The notes under the pieces were generated by a model. It did not search any database, was not told where the DNA came from, and worked only from the letters and a program-made list of their open reading frames with translations. Below, piece by piece: positions 885 to 9,303 of a stretch of 64,000 bases of DNA. Both the position numbers and the translations under genes were made by a program. The DNA is from Mycobacterium saskatchewanense (GTDB lineage Bacteria; Actinomycetota; Actinomycetes; Mycobacteriales; Mycobacteriaceae): NCBI RefSeq assembly GCF_010729105.1, contig NZ_AP022573.1:930001-994000 (forward strand), read 5' to 3'. How positions within the stretch are numbered: position 1 is the first letter of the stretch; every line of letters starts with the position of its first letter.

Positions 885-1157
885 TCAAACCGGTAGTTGA
901 ACCAATGGGCGGCCGGTCTCTCGCCACGCCTCATCCGACAGCAGCACATCCAGGTCTACGTGACTGCTCGCGTGCGCGATGTGCTCGACGATCCTTTGGC
1001 GCCGCGTCGTCGTGGACTCGTCACCGTGGGCCACCAGTTGACGCAGGGCGCGCTCGACCTTAGCCCGCAAGGTTTCTCCGGCGATTGGCCTGTGCGGCTT
1101 CCCCCCGCTGCAATCGCCGCCCAGGCCGCGATTAAATACGCCGTCAAGCTGGCGCAC
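885..1157 (-). CDS. Possible small hypothetical protein or gene remnant
   Basis: This 90-codon frame from GTG 1157 has no recognised domain. The second half (about residues 30-85) has protein-like composition with alternating charged and hydrophobic residues, while the first 25 residues are Gly/Arg-rich and look non-coding. There is no convincing ribosome binding site. It may be a decayed fragment rather than a gene. Confidence 0.25.
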   Translation of the reverse strand: MRQLDGVFNRGLGGDCSGGKPHRPIAGETLRAKVERALRQLVAHGDESTTTRRQRIVEHIAHASSHVDLDVLLSDEAWRETGRPLVQLPV

Positions 1158-1709
1158 CGGCGGTCAGAGTGGCATGCCACTTGTAACGGTTCTAGCGACT
1201 TCCGCCTCAGCTAGGGGCATCACCTGTCCGTCCCCAGTAACACCCCCGGCCCGAGACGAACGGCTGGAAGGAATTAAAACTGCTCTTCAGAAGGCCTTCG
1301 TGTCGCGGAGACCGGGTGCGAAGTCGCATCAAGGAACGCGCACTGCCCGGCGTCTACGCGAAACGAAGCCGAAATATGACCGCCAACCCCTAAACCTACT
1401 AGAAACGTTACGAGTATTTGGGGGTGACATCTGGATCATAGCTTCAAAGGCGCAGTCAGATACCATACCCCGCTTCAGCAGACTCGATAGAAACGGTACG
1501 ACCACATCTCGGCGGCGCTGCTACCGGCTGCCACGCTCAACGGGATGCCGCCGCGCTTGCCGGCCCGCAACTACGGCAACGTGTCGGGTCTGCTGCGCAG
1601 CCTCTGCGGGCGCCGGGGTGTCTGTAGTTTCGAGCGCCCAGCGGCGGGCGGCCTTTCGGGGCGCTTTTGTGGCCCTGCTACCGATCTAGCGAACTAAGGG
1701 CAAAGCACA
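1158..1709. other. Intergenic leader upstream of the permease operon, with a short relic frame
   Basis: No full gene is visible. The central part (about 1370-1500) is clearly less GC-rich than its surroundings and would suit a promoter. On the + strand a short open frame (1491-1697) reads like real protein (for example NGMPPRLPARNYGNVSGLL) but has a stop directly upstream and no start, so it is probably the tail of a lost gene. A CCCC/GGGGG pairing is possible between about 1386 and 1427; no known riboswitch was recognised. Confidence 0.4.
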
Positions 1710-3104
1710 GTGAAGACACTTGAAGTCGAGCATCGGACGACCGCCAGAGTGCCGCAGGACGAGCGCTTCGGTCGAGCACGGGACCTGCTCGGGATCTGGT
1801 TCGCGTTCAACATGGGCCCGCTGGGCCTCGTGGAAGGGGCCGTCGGAGTCACCCTCGGCCTGTCTACGGTGTGGGTAATCGTGGGACTCTTGCTTGGCAA
1901 CATGCTCGGCGGGCTGACGATGGCCTTCCATGCGGCACAAGGGCCTGCGCTGGGAGTACCGCAGATGTTGCAGGCTCGGGGGCAGTTCGGCATGCGCGGC
2001 GCCTCCGTGCTGACGAGCGTACAAGTCGTGGTGGCGCTGGGATATTTCGTGTCGGTTCTCATCGCCTCGGCGCAGTCGGTGAACCGGCTGTTTCCAGCCA
2101 TCAGTGTGACGACGGCAATTTTTGTTTCGATTGCGATGAGTTTCTTGATCACCTTTGTCGGGTTCAGGCTCATCAGCGCGATGGCGAAGGTGGTTGCGGG
2201 GGCCATCGGGATATTCGCGGTGATCCTCATCATGGCGATGGTGATGAACGGCTCGCTCGACAGCACGATGTTGCGAGGGGGCGACTTCAAGGTCCAGAGT
2301 TTCTTCCTCGTTGTCAGCGTCGCTGCTTCGTGGCAACTCGCCTGGGCGCCTGATGTCTCGGACTATTCACGCTACTTGCCGTCGACGACGGGCTCCCGCC
2401 CCGCGTTTTGGTGCACCTACCTGGGCTGCTCGTTGGGCGGGGCACTCATGATGATTCTCGGCGCTCTCGCCGCCGCGACCGTGTCCTCCGCAGACGCATT
2501 GGAGGGATTGCACACCGGGGTTGGCGCGCTCGGTGCGGTCGCGCTGGTCTTGTGCGTTGCCGCCGCGGCGACGATGAATACGGTCAATTCCTACAGTGCG
2601 ACGATCTGCGTGGTGTCGACCTACGAAGGCTTCCGGCCTGTCAAACCCCTGAAGAACAGCCGGTTCGTGGCTCTGGGCGCAATCTATGTGCTGGCTTTGG
2701 TTTTGGCTTTAGCCGGCTCGAGCAACTTCACCACCCACCTCATCACGTTCGTCTACATGTGCATGTACGTGCTCATTCCTTGGTCGGCAATCAACTTGGC
2801 CGACTACTACATCGTCAGGCACGGGCATTACGACGTGCAGCAGTTCTTCATGCCGCACGCGGGCATCTATGGCGACTGGAACAAGCGGGCGGGGGTCGTT
2901 TTCCTCATTGGCCTGGCGGTCGAGGTGCCCTTCATGGCCACCGAGCTGTACCAGGGGCCGATCGCACACATGCTCGGAGGAATAGACGTCGCCTGGGTCG
3001 TCGGGTACGTCGTTTCGTTCGGTCTGTACGTAGCGATCGCGCAGCGTTCGAAGTCCGTCACCGAAACTGTGCGTTCCCTCGACCCGACGTTGGCCGTCGA
3101 GTAG
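1710..3104 (+). CDS. NCS1-family (cytosine/purine/allantoin-type) permease
   Basis: This 464-residue polytopic membrane protein has about 12 hydrophobic segments. The N-terminal pattern RARDLLGIWFAFNMGPLG is typical of nucleobase-cation-symport-1 carriers (CodB/PucI type), as are the later DVSDYSRYLP and NLADYYIVRHGHYD motifs. Such carriers import nucleobases, hydantoins, thiamine precursors or pyridine-type vitamins with H+ or Na+. GTG 1710 is chosen because AAGGG lies about 10 bases before it. A monooxygenase and a NAMPT-like phosphoribosyltransferase follow 96 bp downstream, so this is probably the uptake step for the substrate they share. Confidence 0.85.
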   Translation: MKTLEVEHRTTARVPQDERFGRARDLLGIWFAFNMGPLGLVEGAVGVTLGLSTVWVIVGLLLGNMLGGLTMAFHAAQGPALGVPQMLQARGQFGMRGASVLTSVQVVVALGYFVSVLIASAQSVNRLFPAISVTTAIFVSIAMSFLITFVGFRLISAMAKVVAGAIGIFAVILIMAMVMNGSLDSTMLRGGDFKVQSFFLVVSVAASWQLAWAPDVSDYSRYLPSTTGSRPAFWCTYLGCSLGGALMMILGALAAATVSSADALEGLHTGVGALGAVALVLCVAAAATMNTVNSYSATICVVSTYEGFRPVKPLKNSRFVALGAIYVLALVLALAGSSNFTTHLITFVYMCMYVLIPWSAINLADYYIVRHGHYDVQQFFMPHAGIYGDWNKRAGVVFLIGLAVEVPFMATELYQGPIAHMLGGIDVAWVVGYVVSFGLYVAIAQRSKSVTETVRSLDPTLAVE

Positions 3105-3200
3105 CAGCACCGTCGGCCGCGGAGTCGAGTGGCTCCGCACCGGACCGAGCCCGTTGCGAAGTACGACCAACAAGCTTGAGACAGAAAGGAATAGCAGTCG

Positions 3201-4526
3201 ATGTCGCGGACGATGCACCTGGTCGCCTTCTTGGGGACCGGCCCCACGATTTTTCATCAAGGAGCTTGGCGCCACCCGGCGACCGAGAACGATTTCCTGG
3301 ACGGTGACTTTCTTGTGCGGCTCACCCAGACCCTCGAGCGGGCGAAGTTCGACGCTGTCTTCTTCGCCGACGGTCTGGTCCTCTACGACGGTCAGGCGGA
3401 AAAGGGCGGCCTGCTGTACCTTTTGGACCCCATCGTCGTCGCCGCAACCGTGGCGCAGGCGACGAGCAGGATCGGGATCGGTATCACAGTGTCGACGAGC
3501 TATTTCGAGCCCTACGGAATCGCGCGGAGCTTGGGATCGGTGGATGTACTGAGCAAGGGCCGCATGGCGTGGAACATCGTCACCGGCGGCGCCGAAGTCG
3601 ACGCCGAGGCGAGAAAGTTCGGCTATGAGGTCGGGCTGAACAGAGAGGAACGGTACGACCGCGCTACCGAGGTCGTCGAAGCCTGCCTTCAGCTCTGGGA
3701 CAGCTTCCCAGCCGACGCCATCGTCGCCGACCGCGAAAGCGGCAGGTTCATGGACGCTTCCAAGCTGGTGAACTTTCAATACAGAGGCAAGTACGTCGGG
3801 ACCGAGGGCCCCCTGAACGTTCCCGCGAGCCCGCAAGGCAGACCGATCCTGATGCAGGCGGGAAGCTCACCCCGAGGCCGGGACTTCGCCGCACAGTTCG
3901 CCGAGGTCATCTTCGTCGTACAGAAGACCGCGGACGATATCCGGGCCTTTGTCGACGACATGACCGCCCGGCTGGCAAAGTTCGGGCGGTCGCGGTCTGA
4001 GTGCCTCATCCTTTCCCAGGTCAATGTCGTCGTCGCGGAAACATCGAGCATCGCACGAGAGCGGTGGGATCTGCTCAACTCGCTCATCGACGAAGAAACG
4101 GCGCTCCGGTGGGCGTCGTCGGCCACTGGAGTCGATCTGCGCGGGCTCCCCTTGGACACGCCGATCCGAGAACTGGATTTCAGCGCCGTCGACCCCGACG
4201 GAAAGGGTTCGTCGGGGTACGTCCAATTGCTCCTTCAGCAGGCTGCCGAGGGCGAAGACATCACGCTTCGCCAGGCGGCAATCCGAGTCAGTAACTCCGC
4301 CGCCGAGATCGTCGGCGACCCCGACGAAGTGACCGACGGACTGGAAGAGCTCTTCCGCAGCGGGGGTGGGGACGGATTCATCCTGTGTGCGCCCGTGATG
4401 CCGAGTGGCTTCGAGGACTTCGCGCGACTCGTCATCCCCTGCCTTCGGCGGAGGGGGCTCGTCGCCGCCGACTACCCGGGAACCACTTTGCGTTCGACGC
4501 TCTTTGGCTTGTGCTCCGATGAGTGA
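3201..4526 (+). CDS. LLM-class flavin-dependent monooxygenase, NtaA/SnaA/DszA group
   Basis: The 441-residue protein matches the long bacterial-luciferase-like subgroup (nitrilotriacetate monooxygenase component A, DszA and related enzymes): HLVAFLG at the start, GWHxP-type GAWRHP at 21-26, LLDPIVVAATVAQATSRIG and the AWNIVTGG signature near residue 118. These enzymes use reduced FMN from a separate reductase to oxygenate C-N or C-S bonds; no reductase gene is adjacent. AGAAAGGA lies just before ATG 3201. Its stop overlaps the start of the phosphoribosyltransferase by 8 bp, so translation is coupled. The substrate is unknown; its position between a nucleobase-type carrier and a NAMPT homologue suggests an N-heterocycle. 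Confidence 0.85.
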   Translation: MSRTMHLVAFLGTGPTIFHQGAWRHPATENDFLDGDFLVRLTQTLERAKFDAVFFADGLVLYDGQAEKGGLLYLLDPIVVAATVAQATSRIGIGITVSTSYFEPYGIARSLGSVDVLSKGRMAWNIVTGGAEVDAEARKFGYEVGLNREERYDRATEVVEACLQLWDSFPADAIVADRESGRFMDASKLVNFQYRGKYVGTEGPLNVPASPQGRPILMQAGSSPRGRDFAAQFAEVIFVVQKTADDIRAFVDDMTARLAKFGRSRSECLILSQVNVVVAETSSIARERWDLLNSLIDEETALRWASSATGVDLRGLPLDTPIRELDFSAVDPDGKGSSGYVQLLLQQAAEGEDITLRQAAIRVSNSAAEIVGDPDEVTDGLEELFRSGGGDGFILCAPVMPSGFEDFARLVIPCLRRRGLVAADYPGTTLRSTLFGLCSDE

Positions 4527-5937
4527 ACGCTCTTTCTGGCGCAACTTCATCCTGAACATCGACGCCAACAAACACACGAATTTCGCGCAGTACCCGGACG
4601 GCATGGAGTACCTGTCGGGTTACCTGGAGGCGCGTGGGGGTCCCTACCCGGTGTCGCTGTTCGTCGGGCTCCAGGCATTCCTCATCGAGTACCTGTCGCG
4701 TCGGATTACGACGAAAGATGTGCAGCAGGCCGAGGCGTTCATGGGCCACGGACTCGGAGTGCGGTTCAACCGCGACGGATGGCAGGGCATCGTCAATGAG
4801 CACGACGGGTATCTGCCCATCGAGATCGAAGCTGTTCCGGAGGGAACGGTCCTCCCGATCGGGAATGTGCTCCTCCAGGTCGTGAACACCGACCCAAAAT
4901 ACGCATGGCTCACGACTTACATCGAAACCGCGCTGCTACGAGCGGTGTGGTACCCGACGACCGTCGGCACACTGAGCTGGCTGCTGAAGCAGGCGCTGCG
5001 CGAAGCTTTCGAGCGCACGTCGGACCACTGCGAGCTGCTGCGGCTGTACCTGGAAGACTTTGGCTTTCGTGGTGTGAGCTCGTTTGAATCGGCAGCGCTG
5101 GGCGGCATGGCGCATTTGGTGAACTTTGATCAGACCAACACCATCGCCGGTGCCATCGCGGCCACGCAGTATTACAACGCGGCGATGCCCAACGCTGCAT
5201 CCTGGCTGCAGGAGCACTCGGTGACGACGGCGTGGGGGCGTGAGCACGAAAGCGATTCGTTCCGAAAGATATTGGCCTACACCGGCGATAACTCGGCGGG
5301 CCTACTCGCCGACACCTATAACCACGAGAACGCGGTGAGCAACATCATAGGCAAGGAGTTGCACGACGAGATTGTCACGTTCCCCGGCCTGGTCACGGTG
5401 CGTTGCGACTCGGGTGACGTGATCACGGTCCCGGCGGACACCGTCGAACGGCTGATGGAGAACTTCGGCTACGACATCAACAGCAAAGGATTCAGGGTGC
5501 TGCCGCCGAACCTCCGCGTGGTGCAGGGCGATGGTCTGGTGCTAGACACGCACACAGCGCTTTACGCGGAGCTCGAGCGTCGCGGACTCGCCGCCGACAA
5601 TGTCATCTGCGGAATGGGCGGTGGCCTGCTGCAGCAGGTGAACCGAGACACCATGCGATTCGGCTTCAAGGCCAACGCCGTGTGCATCCAAGGCAGCTGG
5701 CGCGATGTCTCCAAAAGCCCGACCGGCGACACCGTCAAGAAGTCCAAGCCCGGCCGCCTGGCACTGGAGTACCGGGATGGCCAGTACCGCACAGTGCCGC
5801 GCGATTCGATCCCACCCGAGCAGAACCTGCTCCAACCGGTGTTTCGCGACGGAAAGGTACTGCGGCTGCAGCACTTTCAGGAAGTCATCGAGCGCAGCGA
5901 GCGTCCTACGCCGAGGCACTACTACATGGGGACGTAG
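4519..5937 (+). CDS. NAMPT/NadV-family phosphoribosyltransferase with altered base pocket
   Basis: The 472-residue product aligns along its length with nicotinamide phosphoribosyltransferase. ATG 4519 overlaps the upstream stop (ATGAGTGA). Conserved: Asp15, DFGFRGVSS (Phe181, Arg184; human Phe193, Arg196), catalytic EH (His233; human His247), RCDSGD (Arg295, Asp297; human Arg311, Asp313), QGDG and GGGLLQ. Two residues that define the nicotinamide site differ. The stacking Tyr18 of the human enzyme is Asn17 here (IDANK instead of TDSYK), and the amide-reading Asp219 is Asn207 (QTNT instead of GTDT). Family members couple a base to PRPP to make a mononucleotide. This one may take nicotinate or another heterocycle, delivered by the upstream permease and perhaps modified by the monooxygenase. 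Confidence 0.85.
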   Translation: MSERSFWRNFILNIDANKHTNFAQYPDGMEYLSGYLEARGGPYPVSLFVGLQAFLIEYLSRRITTKDVQQAEAFMGHGLGVRFNRDGWQGIVNEHDGYLPIEIEAVPEGTVLPIGNVLLQVVNTDPKYAWLTTYIETALLRAVWYPTTVGTLSWLLKQALREAFERTSDHCELLRLYLEDFGFRGVSSFESAALGGMAHLVNFDQTNTIAGAIAATQYYNAAMPNAASWLQEHSVTTAWGREHESDSFRKILAYTGDNSAGLLADTYNHENAVSNIIGKELHDEIVTFPGLVTVRCDSGDVITVPADTVERLMENFGYDINSKGFRVLPPNLRVVQGDGLVLDTHTALYAELERRGLAADNVICGMGGGLLQQVNRDTMRFGFKANAVCIQGSWRDVSKSPTGDTVKKSKPGRLALEYRDGQYRTVPRDSIPPEQNLLQPVFRDGKVLRLQHFQEVIERSERPTPRHYYMGT

Positions 5938-6028
5938 AACCGATTAAGCCCTGCGGATCTTCGCGCAGCTACGACAGGGGACTTCCGTTAGCCGCTGCGA
6001 GCGCTGAGCGGGAGACGCGATCGGCTTC

Positions 6029-6847
6029 TCACGACAAGGTTTCGAGCGGAACGATCCCCGGGGCCGGAAAGCTCTCATCGAGCACTCGCAGCTCGTCAGC
6101 GGATAGCCTCAAGTGCATCGCTGCAGCGTTCTGCTCGATGTGCGCCCGACGAGTCGCCTTCGGAACGGCGATTACGTCGCCATCTCGTACGGCCCAGGAG
6201 AGCGCAACCTGCGCGGGTGTTATCCCACGCGCCTGGGCTATGTCCACCAACGCGGGCCTGTCCAACAGGCGCCCCTTTTCTATCGGCGAGTACGCCATGA
6301 TCGTGGTGCCTGACGCGCGAGACCTAGGAAATAGGTTGGCCTCTGGGCCGCGCCGGGTGATGTTGTATAGGACTTGATTGGCGGCCGGAACGGCACCGGC
6401 GGGTAGATCGTCAAGATCAGCAACGTCGAGGTTGCTGACGCCCCATTCGCGGATGTCACCCGCCTCCTGCAACCGGTGGAACGCTTGCACCGTCTCGCTG
6501 AGCGGGACTTCACGGCGCCAATGCAATAAATACACGTCGATGCGGTCGGTTCCCAGTCGACGCAGGCTTGCATGGCAGGCGCGGACGGTCCCCTCCTCTG
6601 TCGCATTGGCTGGCAGCACCTTGCTCACCACGCAAACCTCGTCGCGGCGACCTAAGATCGCTTTGCCCACAATGACTTCAGCATTGCCGTCCGCGTAGAG
6701 CTCAGCAGTGTCGATCAACGTCATGCCCAGATCGATGCCAGCGCGCAAAGCCGTGATTTCGTCGGCTTCGCTATGGTGGTCCTCGCCGAACCGCCACGTT
6801 CCCTGGCCGATTGCGGCAAGGTCGCGCAGCGTGCCGATGCTAACCAT
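6029..6847 (-). CDS. Aldo/keto reductase
   Basis: This 272-residue (beta/alpha)8 oxidoreductase has the catalytic tetrad in order: Asp in DTAELY near residue 47, Tyr in the same motif, Lys in VVSK near 76, and His in YLLHW near 109. The C-terminal IAVPKATRRAHIEQNAAA is the NADPH-phosphate binding region. Family members reduce aldehydes and ketones with NADPH; the substrate is unknown. It is convergent with the permease/phosphoribosyltransferase operon and probably unrelated to it. Confidence 0.9.
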   Translation of the reverse strand: MVSIGTLRDLAAIGQGTWRFGEDHHSEADEITALRAGIDLGMTLIDTAELYADGNAEVIVGKAILGRRDEVCVVSKVLPANATEEGTVRACHASLRRLGTDRIDVYLLHWRREVPLSETVQAFHRLQEAGDIREWGVSNLDVADLDDLPAGAVPAANQVLYNITRRGPEANLFPRSRASGTTIMAYSPIEKGRLLDRPALVDIAQARGITPAQVALSWAVRDGDVIAVPKATRRAHIEQNAAAMHLRLSADELRVLDESFPAPGIVPLETLS

Positions 6848-7369
6848 CAGCCATGGCTACGCCGCCGGCGATGCACCGAGGAACGGCTCGGGTTTGTCCC
6901 CGTAATACCTTGAGGGGGTATGGATTTCACTTCGCCGGATGAGACCGTGTATGTGCCCTCTTGTGTCTGTCGACGTTGGTGATGATATTGCCCTAGTGAC
7001 TCCATTGCGCCATGGTCTTCTTCCTGTCCTGTTTGTGCGCTAAACACGCGTAAGAGAGGTGTGGAGTCTGCGAGGCTCTCCGCCGATCGGGCGCGAGCCG
7101 CCAACCAGTTCTGAAGTCTAGGAGTTCCACTCTGGAGCCGCAAACGCAAGTAACGTTTCTATTGTGACACGCTGATCGCCCTTGAGCGCCCTCGATTCTC
7201 GTGAGAGATGCCCGACCGACGCGTAGCCACCAAGAGCTGGAACTTGCTTGAAACGTATCTTTCTCAGCCATTGGCGGAAGGGGGCTGGAGCCCCCGCTCG
7301 AGCGGGCCGTCACCGCAAAGGACCCGCCGGCTTGGTGGCCGATACCCGGGTTGGACTCCTTCTTCCTCA
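6848..7369. other. Intergenic region without a supported gene
   Basis: Short open frames exist on both strands, but none has family motifs, a plausible ribosome binding site and coding-like third-position bias together. The GC content is lower than in neighbouring genes. It presumably holds the aldo/keto reductase promoter and the lost 5' end of the broken gene that follows. Confidence 0.4.
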
Positions 7370-7798
7370 GCCTTCGCCGGCAACTGCTCACCCGACTGCC
7401 GTTGATCCAGTTCCATCACCACACGGGCCGATGGAGGATCTGGCGGTCTCGGCGAGCTTCGGTGGATTGGTGCGCAACTTCGTTGACGCGGGCAAGCCGG
7501 TTGGGCGGTGTGCCATGGTCCCGCTGCGTTGTTGTCGGCCAACACCGCGGGGGGAAGGTGGCTCTTTGCCGGATATCAGCTGACGGGCGTCAGCAGTAGC
7601 GAAGAGGAACAGGTCGGCTTTGCAGACGAGGCAGCCTGGCTGCTGGAGGACTGCCTCAGAAACCGAGGCGGCTTGTACGCGAAGTCCGCGGAGCCGTGGA
7701 AGGAATTCGTCATCGTCGAGCGCAATGTCTACACCCGCGCCTACGTCGAAGGGCGCCGCGCAGAGGACGTACGACCGGACAGATCCGACGCTGCCTGA
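7370..7798 (+). pseudogene. DJ-1/PfpI (type 1 glutamine amidotransferase-like) gene, frameshifted and lacking its 5' end
   Basis: Two adjacent frames together give the C-terminal two thirds of a DJ-1/PfpI protein. The first reads HGPMEDLAV ... DAGKPVG (to about 7503). The second continues as CHGPAALLSAN, then FAGYQLTGVSSSEEEQVGF and LLEDCLRNRGGLY. The catalytic nucleophile is the Cys of CHGPAA. The break is in GGTTGGGCGGTG, where one more G would restore PVGAVCHGP. The N-terminal strand with the family's conserved Glu is not visible, so the gene looks dead whatever the status of the shift. Confidence 0.75.
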
Positions 7799-7826
7799 TC
7801 TGTTCTGCTCCGCTAGTGTGTTGGTT

Positions 7827-9257
7827 GTGACGGTTCGAAAATCAAACCGTAAGACGCCCCGCTGGGTTCTCGCATCCGTCGTCGTGGCGGCCGTGTTCAT
7901 GGCGAACCTCGATCTGTGGATCGTCAACGTCGCGCTCGTCGACATGGGGCGCGGTTTCGGCAACTCGCTGTCCGCGGTCTCCTGGGTGCTCAACGCATAC
8001 GCCATCGGGCTGGCCGCGCTGTTGGTCCCGGCCGGCCGACTCGGCGACCGCCTGGGGCAGCGGCGGGTGTTCCTCAGCGGCATCGCGGTGTTCACCCTCG
8101 CCTCGCTGGGCTGCGCCGTCGCGCCGAACCTCGCGTTGCTTGTGGCCGCGCGCGTCCTGCAGGCCGTCGGCGCCGCCGCGCAACTGCCCACGTCCCTCGC
8201 TCTGCTGATGGCCTCGGTGGAACCGCACCGCCGCACCAACGTGGCCCGCGGCTGGGCCGCCGTCGGGGCACTCGCGGCGGTGTGCGGCCCGGTGCTCGGC
8301 GGCCTCCTGGTCACCTTCGACTGGCGGTGGGTGTTCGTGGTGAACCTGCCGGTCGGGCTCGCCGCGTGGCTCGTCGGGCGCCGCGTGCTGCCGGTCGAAC
8401 CTGCCCGCCGCGACGAGCGGCTGCCCGACCTCGTCGGCAGCGCGCTGCTGATCGTCGCCGTGGCCGCCCTGACCGGCGCGCTCGTGCAGGCGCCCATCTG
8501 GGGCTGGGCTTCGGCCGGCACGGCCGCGCTGGTGGCGCTCACCGTGCTGGGCACCGGGGCGTTCGTGTGGCGGTCGGCCCGGCATCCGCAGCCGCTGCTC
8601 GAACTGCCGCTGCTGAGGATCCGCCACTTCGCCATCGCCAACGTCGCGTTCTTCTGCTTCGGCGCCGCCTTCGCCATCATGCTGTTGTCCAATTCGCTGT
8701 GGTGCCAGAACGTTTGGCACTACAGCGTGCTGCGCACAGGCTTGGCCATGGCGCCGAGCCCGGCCGTGGTGCCGTTCGTCACATTCGGGTCGACCCGGCT
8801 GGTGCACCGCATCGGGCCCGGCCCGGTGGCCGCGATCGGCAGCGTGCTATTCGCCGCCGCGCTACTGTGGCGGATCGTGCTGGCCAAGGCCGCACCGCAC
8901 TACCTGACCGATCTGTTGCCCAGCATGCTGTTCAGCGGAATCGGGGTCGGGCTGACGCTGAGCACGCTCATGGCCGCCGGCGCGACGGCGCTACCCCCAG
9001 CCCGCGCCGCGACGGGCTCGGCGCTGGTCAACTCCGGACGGCAGGTCGCCTCGGCGCTGGGCGTGGCGATCTTGGTGACGGCGCTCGGACCGACCGCTTC
9101 CGTCCGCGAGTTCGACCTGGGGTGGTGGCTGGCGCTGGCCTTCATCGCCGCGACCGCGGTGATCAGCCTGACGCTGCAGCACGTCCGCTCCGAAGTCTCC
9201 GCCGCCGCGTCCGTTCCGGCCGCCGCACCCGCCGAGCCGATTGCCGAATTGGCCTGA
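7827..9257 (+). CDS. MFS drug/solute exporter, DHA2 (14-TM, EmrB/QacA) type
   Basis: The 476-residue product has about 14 hydrophobic segments. Motif A, GRLGDRLGQRRVF, follows TM2, and the TM1 sequence FMANLDLWIVNVALVDM is typical of EmrB/QacA-type exporters (D in TM1). GTG 7827 (TVRKSNRK...) is preferred because it puts a short basic tail before TM1; GTG 7818 is possible. Members export drugs, dyes or metabolites by proton antiport. No regulator is adjacent. The stop is 46 bases before the next start. Confidence 0.85.
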   Translation: MTVRKSNRKTPRWVLASVVVAAVFMANLDLWIVNVALVDMGRGFGNSLSAVSWVLNAYAIGLAALLVPAGRLGDRLGQRRVFLSGIAVFTLASLGCAVAPNLALLVAARVLQAVGAAAQLPTSLALLMASVEPHRRTNVARGWAAVGALAAVCGPVLGGLLVTFDWRWVFVVNLPVGLAAWLVGRRVLPVEPARRDERLPDLVGSALLIVAVAALTGALVQAPIWGWASAGTAALVALTVLGTGAFVWRSARHPQPLLELPLLRIRHFAIANVAFFCFGAAFAIMLLSNSLWCQNVWHYSVLRTGLAMAPSPAVVPFVTFGSTRLVHRIGPGPVAAIGSVLFAAALLWRIVLAKAAPHYLTDLLPSMLFSGIGVGLTLSTLMAAGATALPPARAATGSALVNSGRQVASALGVAILVTALGPTASVREFDLGWWLALAFIAATAVISLTLQHVRSEVSAAASVPAAAPAEPIAELA

Positions 9258-9303
9258 GGTCATAGGGCTGCAGACACCGCGCCGCGATGGAAGTATCGCA
9301 GGG

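What the first reader, a model, noticed from the sequence alone, without database searches (positions are those of the whole stretch)
1710..5937. Permease, flavin monooxygenase and altered NAMPT homologue: a possible new base-salvage pathway
Three genes in one direction (NCS1 carrier, 96-bp gap, LLM monooxygenase, 8-bp overlap, NAMPT-family PRTase) look like one operon. Seen: the PRTase keeps the catalytic His, PRPP-site Arg/Asp and stacking Phe, but Tyr18 and Asp219 of human NAMPT, which stack on and read nicotinamide, are Asn17 and Asn207. Known: Asp219 is important for choosing nicotinamide over nicotinate, and both residues are kept in the H. ducreyi NadV sequence as I recall it. Inference: the carrier brings in a heterocycle other than nicotinamide, the monooxygenase modifies it or a relative, and the PRTase turns a base into a nucleotide. 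I do not know this combination as a described system.
Basis: partly seen in the sequence, partly recalled or inferred. Interest (0 to 1): 0.75.

Follow-up and report, generated by a model that had tools for sequence, protein, structure and literature searches.

The report
Ribose-tagging genes for N-ring breakdown
The three genes are real and linked, and their relatives suggest that bacteria attach ribose-phosphate to stubborn nitrogen rings such as pyridine in order to break them down, rather than to salvage them as building blocks; no enzyme has yet been tested.

Summary
NCS1 carrier, NtaA/DmoA-type LLM and NAMPT-family PRTase form one unit, and human Tyr18/Asp219 map to Asn17/Asn207. The pair marks a subclade (6 of 205 aligned rows) that also has Glu for His191. 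A convergent aldo-keto reductase (6029-6847) probably belongs: its family follows the PRTase in 6 other loci.

'Base salvage' is not favoured. The genome has five such PRTases. In 66 merged regions of relatives the neighbours are HAD phosphatase (55), LacI (44), GATase-like (40), PRPP synthetase (39), ribokinase (34), aldehyde dehydrogenase (32) and nucleoside hydrolase (28), with either an F420-type reductase (28) or an LLM (15), never both. Glutaryl-CoA dehydrogenase goes with the reductase (8) and not the LLM (0). This fits a ribotide-primed catabolic module: phosphoribosylate the ring, open it by reduction or oxygenation, recycle the ribose. End products suggest pyridines.

Weak points: the window has none of six core ribose-handling genes nearby and would need the 1.47-Mb cluster in trans; its substrate is unknown; nothing is assayed.

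The parts
1710..3104 (+). NCS1-type nucleobase/heterocycle:cation symporter, 464 aa, GTG start
   Evidence: PF02133 164.9 bits against a cut-off of 23.5; TIGR00800 113.2 bits, below its cut-off of 353.1; nearest outside protein 46% identical
3201..4526 (+). FMN-dependent LLM monooxygenase, NtaA/DmoA/DszA family, 441 aa (ATG at 3201, or 437 aa from 3213)
   Evidence: TIGR03860 above cut-off; best solved relative DszA 5tlc, E 2.7e-94; nearest outside protein Gordonia sp. Z-3, 64%
4519..5937 (+). NAMPT-family phosphoribosyltransferase, 472 aa, with Asn17, Asn21, Glu179, Phe181, Asn207
6029..6847 (-). aldo-keto reductase, 272 aa, convergent with the operon; its family directly follows the PRTase in 6 Pseudonocardia/Actinomycetospora loci
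   Evidence: PF00248; 64-72% identity to the AKR in L013-L017 and L061 (L015 copy partial)
900..7500 (.). lower-GC stretch (61.5-63.7%) between 66.8% (1-900) and 70.2% (7500-9300); window mean 66.4%, so the contrast is modest; suggests acquired DNA

Best explanation
The window unit is a satellite of a ribotide-primed catabolic system for N-heteroaromatic bases, most likely pyridine-type rings. Proposed working: (1) the NCS1 carrier imports the base; (2) the NAMPT-like PRTase attaches phosphoribose from PRPP to the ring nitrogen, giving a cationic, electrophilic N-ribotide; (3) the LLM (FMNH2 + O2) attacks and opens that activated ring; (4) the aldo-keto reductase reduces an aldehyde of the opened ring; (5) phosphatase, nucleoside hydrolase, ribokinase and a dedicated PRPP synthetase, encoded in this genome at 1.467-1.482 Mb, remove and recycle the ribose. 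In sister systems an F420-type reductase takes the place of the LLM and the carbon goes to glutaryl-CoA. Shown: gene content, linkage, clade membership, pocket substitutions, non-overlap of the two ring-opening genes. Inferred: order of reactions, substrate, supply of step 5 in trans.
For: Neighbour tally (merged): of 66 regions with catabolic-clade PRTases, HAD 55, LacI 44, GATase1-like 40, PRPS 39, RbsK 34, ALDH 32, NH 28. All are 0 of 13 beside NAD-type PRTases, which have NadM in 10 of 13 (catabolic 0 of 69). F420-type reductase (28) and LLMb (15) never coexist (naive hypergeometric 6e-5, relatedness ignored), nor in 8 further loci outside the tally (5 LLMb, 3 reductase). Glutaryl-CoA dehydrogenase (3swo, E 2.7e-181): 8 of 28 reductase regions, 0 of 15 LLMb; CaiB CoA-transferase 11 and 0; F420-glucose-6-phosphate dehydrogenase (above cut-off) 9 and 0. 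Rhodococcus pDK1 and pRZP2 carry F420-biosynthesis genes in the cluster. Clusters in R. pyridinivorans P23 and the coking-wastewater strain PD04 have LLM, flavin reductase, amidohydrolase, succinate-semialdehyde dehydrogenase and an FdhF/YdeP oxidoreductase. Own genome: this HAD type occurs 3 times, all in PRTase clusters; one of two PRPP synthetases lies in the cluster; the GATase1-like protein occurs once, in the cluster. AKR link. Precedent: a UPRT is part of the yeast URC route from uracil to ribosylurea (PMC7530994, passages).
Against: None of the six core ribose-handling genes lies in the first 14 kb of the window or the 8 kb before it, so the link to the pathway rests on the PRTase clade and the AKR. 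The window LLM is not of LLMb type and was found in 1 of 66 regions, its own. One LLMb locus outside the tally (L110) has a 40% CoA-transferase, and on the PD04 plasmid CoA-transferases and an acyl-CoA dehydrogenase lie about 15 kb from the PRTase. The acyl-CoA dehydrogenases of pDK1 are not of the glutaryl type (28% to the seed). Ten of 66 regions have GCDH at all, 2 of them without reductase. From recall (paper not held), Arthrobacter 68b pyridine monooxygenase opens free pyridine without a ribose step. None of the five closest PRTases (74-77%) shares its longest-contig length with any of the 119 listed outside LLM relatives. No assay, metabolite or ligand-bound model.
Confidence: 0.5

Rival explanations
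1. LLM first: the monooxygenase opens or oxidises the free base (as recalled for pyridine monooxygenase PyrA), and the PRTase with the ribose genes handles a different substrate, a by-product, or detoxification.
For: Recalled PyrA work on free pyridine; gene order puts LLM before PRTase; NtaA/DmoA relatives such as DszA act on free substrates (function recalled).
Against: PRTase, PRPP synthetase, phosphatase and ribokinase recur with both the reductase and the LLM type, so the ribotide step looks common to both and upstream of the divergence.
Confidence: 0.2
2. Base salvage: the PRTase makes a nucleotide of an unusual or oxidised base for use as cofactor or nucleic-acid precursor.
For: NCS1 carriers and PRTases often serve salvage (general knowledge); the window itself carries no ribose-recycling genes.
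Against: Relatives sit with ribotide-dismantling and carbon-oxidising genes and not with NadM (0 of 69).
Confidence: 0.12
3. Ordinary nicotinamide PRTase for NAD synthesis with drifted pocket residues.
For: NCBIfam PRK09198 above cut-off; NAMPT fold; catalytic and PRPP-site residues kept.
Against: Tyr18Asn, His191Glu and Asp219Asn together in six sequences; five paralogues in one genome; no NadM nearby.
Confidence: 0.08
4. Biosynthesis of a nucleoside-type natural product.
For: PRTase plus oxygenase plus reductase could build one.
Against: Nucleoside hydrolase, ribokinase, glutaryl-CoA dehydrogenase and, in a few loci, an ammonium transporter point to breakdown.
Confidence: 0.04

Closest known systems
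Nicotinamide phosphoribosyltransferase (NAMPT/NadV)
   Same: Fold, catalytic His, PRPP-site Arg/Asp, stacking Phe
   Different: Tyr18, His191 and Asp219 replaced by Asn, Glu and Asn; clade members sit in catabolic-looking clusters; no NadM nearby
Yeast URC pathway (uracil to ribosylurea)
   Same: Logic: a PRTase step, ring opening, then splitting off the ribose part (passages of PMC7530994)
   Different: Uracil PRTase and other ring-opening enzymes; here nucleoside hydrolase, ribokinase and a dedicated PRPP synthetase; homology to URC proteins not tested
Arthrobacter 68b pyridine pathway PyrABCDE (recalled; paper not held)
   Same: LLM, flavin reductase, aldehyde dehydrogenase, amidohydrolase and succinate-semialdehyde dehydrogenase are all annotated in the R. 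pyridinivorans P23 and PD04 clusters
   Different: Recalled pathway has no ribosylation; identity of these LLMs to PyrA could not be tested
Trigonelline degradation (TgnAB, recalled)
   Same: An LLM-type flavoenzyme opening an N-substituted pyridinium ring
   Different: N-methyl instead of N-ribosyl; sequence relation not tested

Membership tests
NAMPT family (fold and PRTase chemistry) | NAMPT fold with catalytic His and PRPP-site Arg/Asp | tested here: met
NAMPT as nicotinamide-specific NAD-salvage enzyme | Tyr18 and Asp219 reading nicotinamide | tested here: not met
   Asn17 and Asn207
NAMPT as nicotinamide-specific NAD-salvage enzyme | NMN adenylyltransferase (NadM) beside it, as in most of the related bacterial NAMPTs | tested here: not met
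   0 of 69 catabolic-clade loci, window included; 10 of 13 NAD-type loci
NtaA/DmoA FMN monooxygenase | score above curated cut-off of TIGR03860 | tested here: met
   426.8 against 279.7 bits
NCS1 symporter | PF02133 domain over nearly the whole chain | tested here: met
   residues 14-432 of 464; the TIGR00800 cut-off was not reached
Ribotide-primed catabolic module (defined here) | PRTase in the catabolic clade | tested here: met
   89-row clade, 100 SH-aLRT
Ribotide-primed catabolic module (defined here) | phosphatase, PRPP synthetase, ribokinase, nucleoside hydrolase, LacI, GATase1-like beside the PRTase | tested here: not met
   none in the first 14 kb of the window or the 8 kb before it; all six present elsewhere in the genome at 1.467-1.482 Mb
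Ribotide-primed catabolic module (defined here) | ring opening acts on the ribotide | not testable with these tools
   needs enzyme assay
PyrABCDE pyridine pathway | LLM homologous to PyrA | not testable with these tools
   PyrA sequence and paper not held
URC pathway | URC1, URC4 and URC6 homologues | not tested
   only the logic was compared

The most novel reading that the evidence does not exclude
Bacteria activate unreactive aromatic N-heterocycles by N-phosphoribosylation, as CoA thioesters activate benzoate. One PRTase-centred module with its own PRPP supply and ribose recycling feeds either an F420H2-dependent reduction of the N-ribosyl-pyridinium (chemistry like the reduction of NADP+, ending in glutarate and glutaryl-CoA) or an LLM oxygenation (ending in succinate semialdehyde and formate). 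It would supply genes for the two pyridine routes proposed in the 1970s (recalled). A CinA/OMP-decarboxylase-like branch would deamidate and decarboxylate carboxamide ribotides into it. The window operon is a specialised version with a rebuilt pocket for another heterocycle.
Probability: 0.42. Interest if true: 0.92.

Novelty: new variant of a known kind. Interest (0 to 1): 0.76.

Why it matters
Unsubstituted pyridine and related rings are stable pollutants, and the genes of the reductive route to glutarate are, as far as I recall, unassigned. If the inference holds, phosphoribosylation is a bacterial way of priming N-aromatics, genes of this clade annotated 'nicotinate phosphoribosyltransferase' (as on the Rhodococcus and Arthrobacter plasmids) are misnamed, and an F420-linked pyridine pathway can be tested directly. 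The six-member Asn/Glu/Asn subclade offers a set for learning how NAMPT specificity changes.

Tried and rejected
Literature: ten PMC searches. Four joined a PRTase to an LLM or to pyridine breakdown and found 0 papers. Four on pyridine genes found 0, 2, 2 and 25 papers (20 of the 25 listed). Two looked for precedents (41, uracil; 69, trigonelline; 1 paper each). Passages were read in PMC7530994, PMC7356986, PMC8498797 and PMC10142695; the rest was seen as listings only. bioRxiv and most subscription papers are not held, so absence from print is not shown. The first genome-contig scan with the single protein found nothing; the alignment scan kept 77 loci (80 of 92 confirmed matches). LacI-type palindromes: none upstream of the NCS1 gene. 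Contexts of the closest PRTases P0004-P0008 could not be fetched; contig-length coincidence was used instead and is indirect. Strong matches in 4 of 397, 4 of 394 and 2 of 396 genomes of the order, class and phylum samples, own genome included each time (limits 1e-100, 1e-120, 1e-120). The LLM at 1e-120 matched only the own genome, 1 of 397.

Limits of the tally: gene order comes from my own codon-usage caller; many contigs are short, so counts are lower bounds; the seeds come from these same loci, so each seed counts its own locus; identity limits were set by me. PRTases under about 420-430 aa were left out of the residue table and the tree; 7 of the 205 rows repeat others.

Considered and not favoured: nicotinamide salvage (pocket changed, no NadM); nucleoside natural product (breakdown genes).

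Full report
Check of the observation. The three genes lie where stated: 1710-3104, 3201-4526 and 4519-5937, all on the + strand, with a 96-bp gap and an 8-bp overlap. Family scans support NCS1 carrier, NtaA/DmoA monooxygenase and NAMPT-type PRTase. Human NAMPT Tyr18 and Asp219 align with Asn17 and Asn207; His247, Arg311, Asp313 and Phe193 are kept. The predicted structure (mean pLDDT 89.5) has human NAMPT as best PDB match at TM about 0.9. Foldseek printed no residue pairs, so the residue assignment rests on the sequence alignment.

Pocket. Among 205 aligned PRTase rows (198 distinct) the pattern at 17/181/184/207/233/295/297 is YYRDHRD in 161, YFRDHRD in 14 (13 NAD-type, NadV included, plus P0031), NFRNHRD in 6 (window and P0004-P0008) and others in 24. 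Six of six also have Glu179 (human His191), found elsewhere only in P0038; five of six have Asn21 (human His22). Position 181 (human Phe193) is Tyr in 173 of 205 rows and Phe in 32; position 205 (human Gly217) is Gln in 180 and Gly in 15. That these human positions line the nicotinamide pocket is recalled. Partial forms occur: Asn17 with Asp207 in 9 distinct rows, including the genome's own 1,484-kb copy, and Tyr17 with Asn207 in 3, including the own 255-kb copy. The full change is thus a clade feature.

The genome. The window is 930,001-994,000 of a 6,008,916-bp contig. Five full PRTases and one fragment are present: the window copy; one at 1,484 kb (65% identical); two in tandem at 1,473-1,476 kb (58-59%); one at 255 kb (55%) with a 5' fragment at 252 kb. 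The stretch 1.467-1.487 Mb holds ribokinase, LacI, GATase1-like, two HAD phosphatases, three PRTases, nucleoside hydrolase, OYE, a PRPP synthetase, an NCS1 carrier, a phosphotriesterase-family protein, a second LLM (LLMb) and NIPSNAP. The HAD type has three matches in the genome, all in these clusters; the PRPP synthetase is one of two matches, the other 44% identical at 2.5 Mb; the GATase1-like gene matches once; LLMb matches once at E up to 1e-50. The F420-type reductase has only a 27% match, so this host would use LLMs.

Relatives. The alignment scan gave 77 loci. With the four own loci and one same-genus genome (L012) these are 82: 69 catabolic-clade and 13 NAD-type. Merging three overlapping pairs leaves 66 catabolic regions: HAD 55, LacI 44, GATase1-like 40, PRPS 39, RbsK 34, ALDH 32, NH 28, F420-type reductase 28, EutQ-like cupin 28, NIPSNAP 16, LLMb 15, CoA-transferase 13, LOG 13, GCDH 10, PTE 9, FGD 9, AKR 8, CinA 8, OMPDC-like 7, window-type LLM 1. 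All are 0 of 13 in the NAD-type loci, where NadM is 10 of 13. 62 of 66 regions have at least one of six core genes and 43 have three or more; the four without any are the window, L018, L029 and L064. Many contigs are short, so counts are lower bounds. The catabolic PRTases form an 89-row clade at 100 SH-aLRT next to NAD-type enzymes (quick tree); it had long branches among the outgroups.

Two chemistries. The reductase (28 regions) and LLMb (15) never share a region, nor do they in eight further loci, five with LLMb and three with the reductase. GCDH (8 of 28), CoA-transferase (11 of 28) and FGD (9 of 28) occur with the reductase and in 0 of 15 LLMb regions; two GCDH and two CoA-transferase regions have neither ring-opening gene. 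Against this, one of the further LLMb loci (L110) has a 40% CoA-transferase; on the PD04 plasmid CoA-transferases and an acyl-CoA dehydrogenase lie about 15 kb from the PRTase; and the acyl-CoA dehydrogenases of reductase-type pDK1 are not of the glutaryl type (28%). The GCDH assignment of the seed is firm (3swo). The CoA-transferase has succinate-glutarate CoA-transferase as best model but below its cut-off; FGD and CofD pass theirs. The reductase is a PNPOx-type protein with weak hits to Rv2991 and to the F420-dependent PPOX model (below cut-off); its F420 use is inferred from FGD and from F420-biosynthesis genes in some clusters. A glutarate end product means five skeletal carbons, hence my inference of a pyridine ring. 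The LLM-type plasmid clusters of R. pyridinivorans P23 and strain PD04 carry LLM, flavin reductase, amidohydrolase, succinate-semialdehyde dehydrogenase, FdhF/YdeP oxidoreductase and FdhD, matching a C4+C1 split. Arthrobacter crystallopoietes pLDW-10 has LLM, flavin reductase, amidohydrolase and an aldehyde dehydrogenase, but no gene named succinate-semialdehyde dehydrogenase or FdhF in the 31 kb shown. The 1970s glutarate and succinate semialdehyde routes and the PyrABCDE pathway are recalled, not read; the reference to the latter was seen in PMC10142695.

The window within this picture. It shares the PRTase clade and the AKR but no core ribose gene and no LLMb. Its GC is somewhat lower than the near flanks, and strong matches are rare in order, class and phylum samples, consistent with horizontal transfer. 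Asn207, Glu179 and Asn17 suggest a base with other hydrogen-bonding groups than nicotinamide; which one is open.

Verdict. Real and more interesting than described, but as catabolism rather than salvage. The general module is well supported by gene linkage; the chemistry, the pyridine assignment and the window operon's own substrate are inference.

Noticed in passing
L008:6553-12953 (G000 about 252.5-259 kb): PRTase 5' fragment with OMPDC-like and CinA-like genes, followed by a full set with HAD and MFS: a decayed tandem duplication. The 8 OMPDC-like proteins listed all keep a Lys and a D(HQ)K..D motif reminiscent of OMP decarboxylase (my reading), suggesting deamidation and decarboxylation of a carboxamide ribotide.
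   Followed up: partly
L047 (Gammaproteobacteria MAG OFTM106): PRTase, CinA and OMPDC-like genes lie beside an F420-reductase-type PRTase cluster, as if feeding it.
   Followed up: no
L051 and L053 (Methyloligella sp. GL2), L091, L094: F420 biosynthesis genes are carried inside the cluster, in L051/L053 in a proteobacterium.
   Followed up: partly
L093:543-2358: Nitrile hydratase genes about 16 kb from the PRTase on the Rhodococcus sp. PD04 plasmid; could supply pyridine carboxamides.
   Followed up: no
GATase1-like family (PF07090), e.g. L009:7287-8087: Protein with no NCBIfam match in 40 of 66 regions; an unassigned step of the module.
   Followed up: no
window:1-866: Amidohydrolase end and HxlR regulator upstream on higher-GC DNA; probably not part of the unit.
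   Followed up: partly
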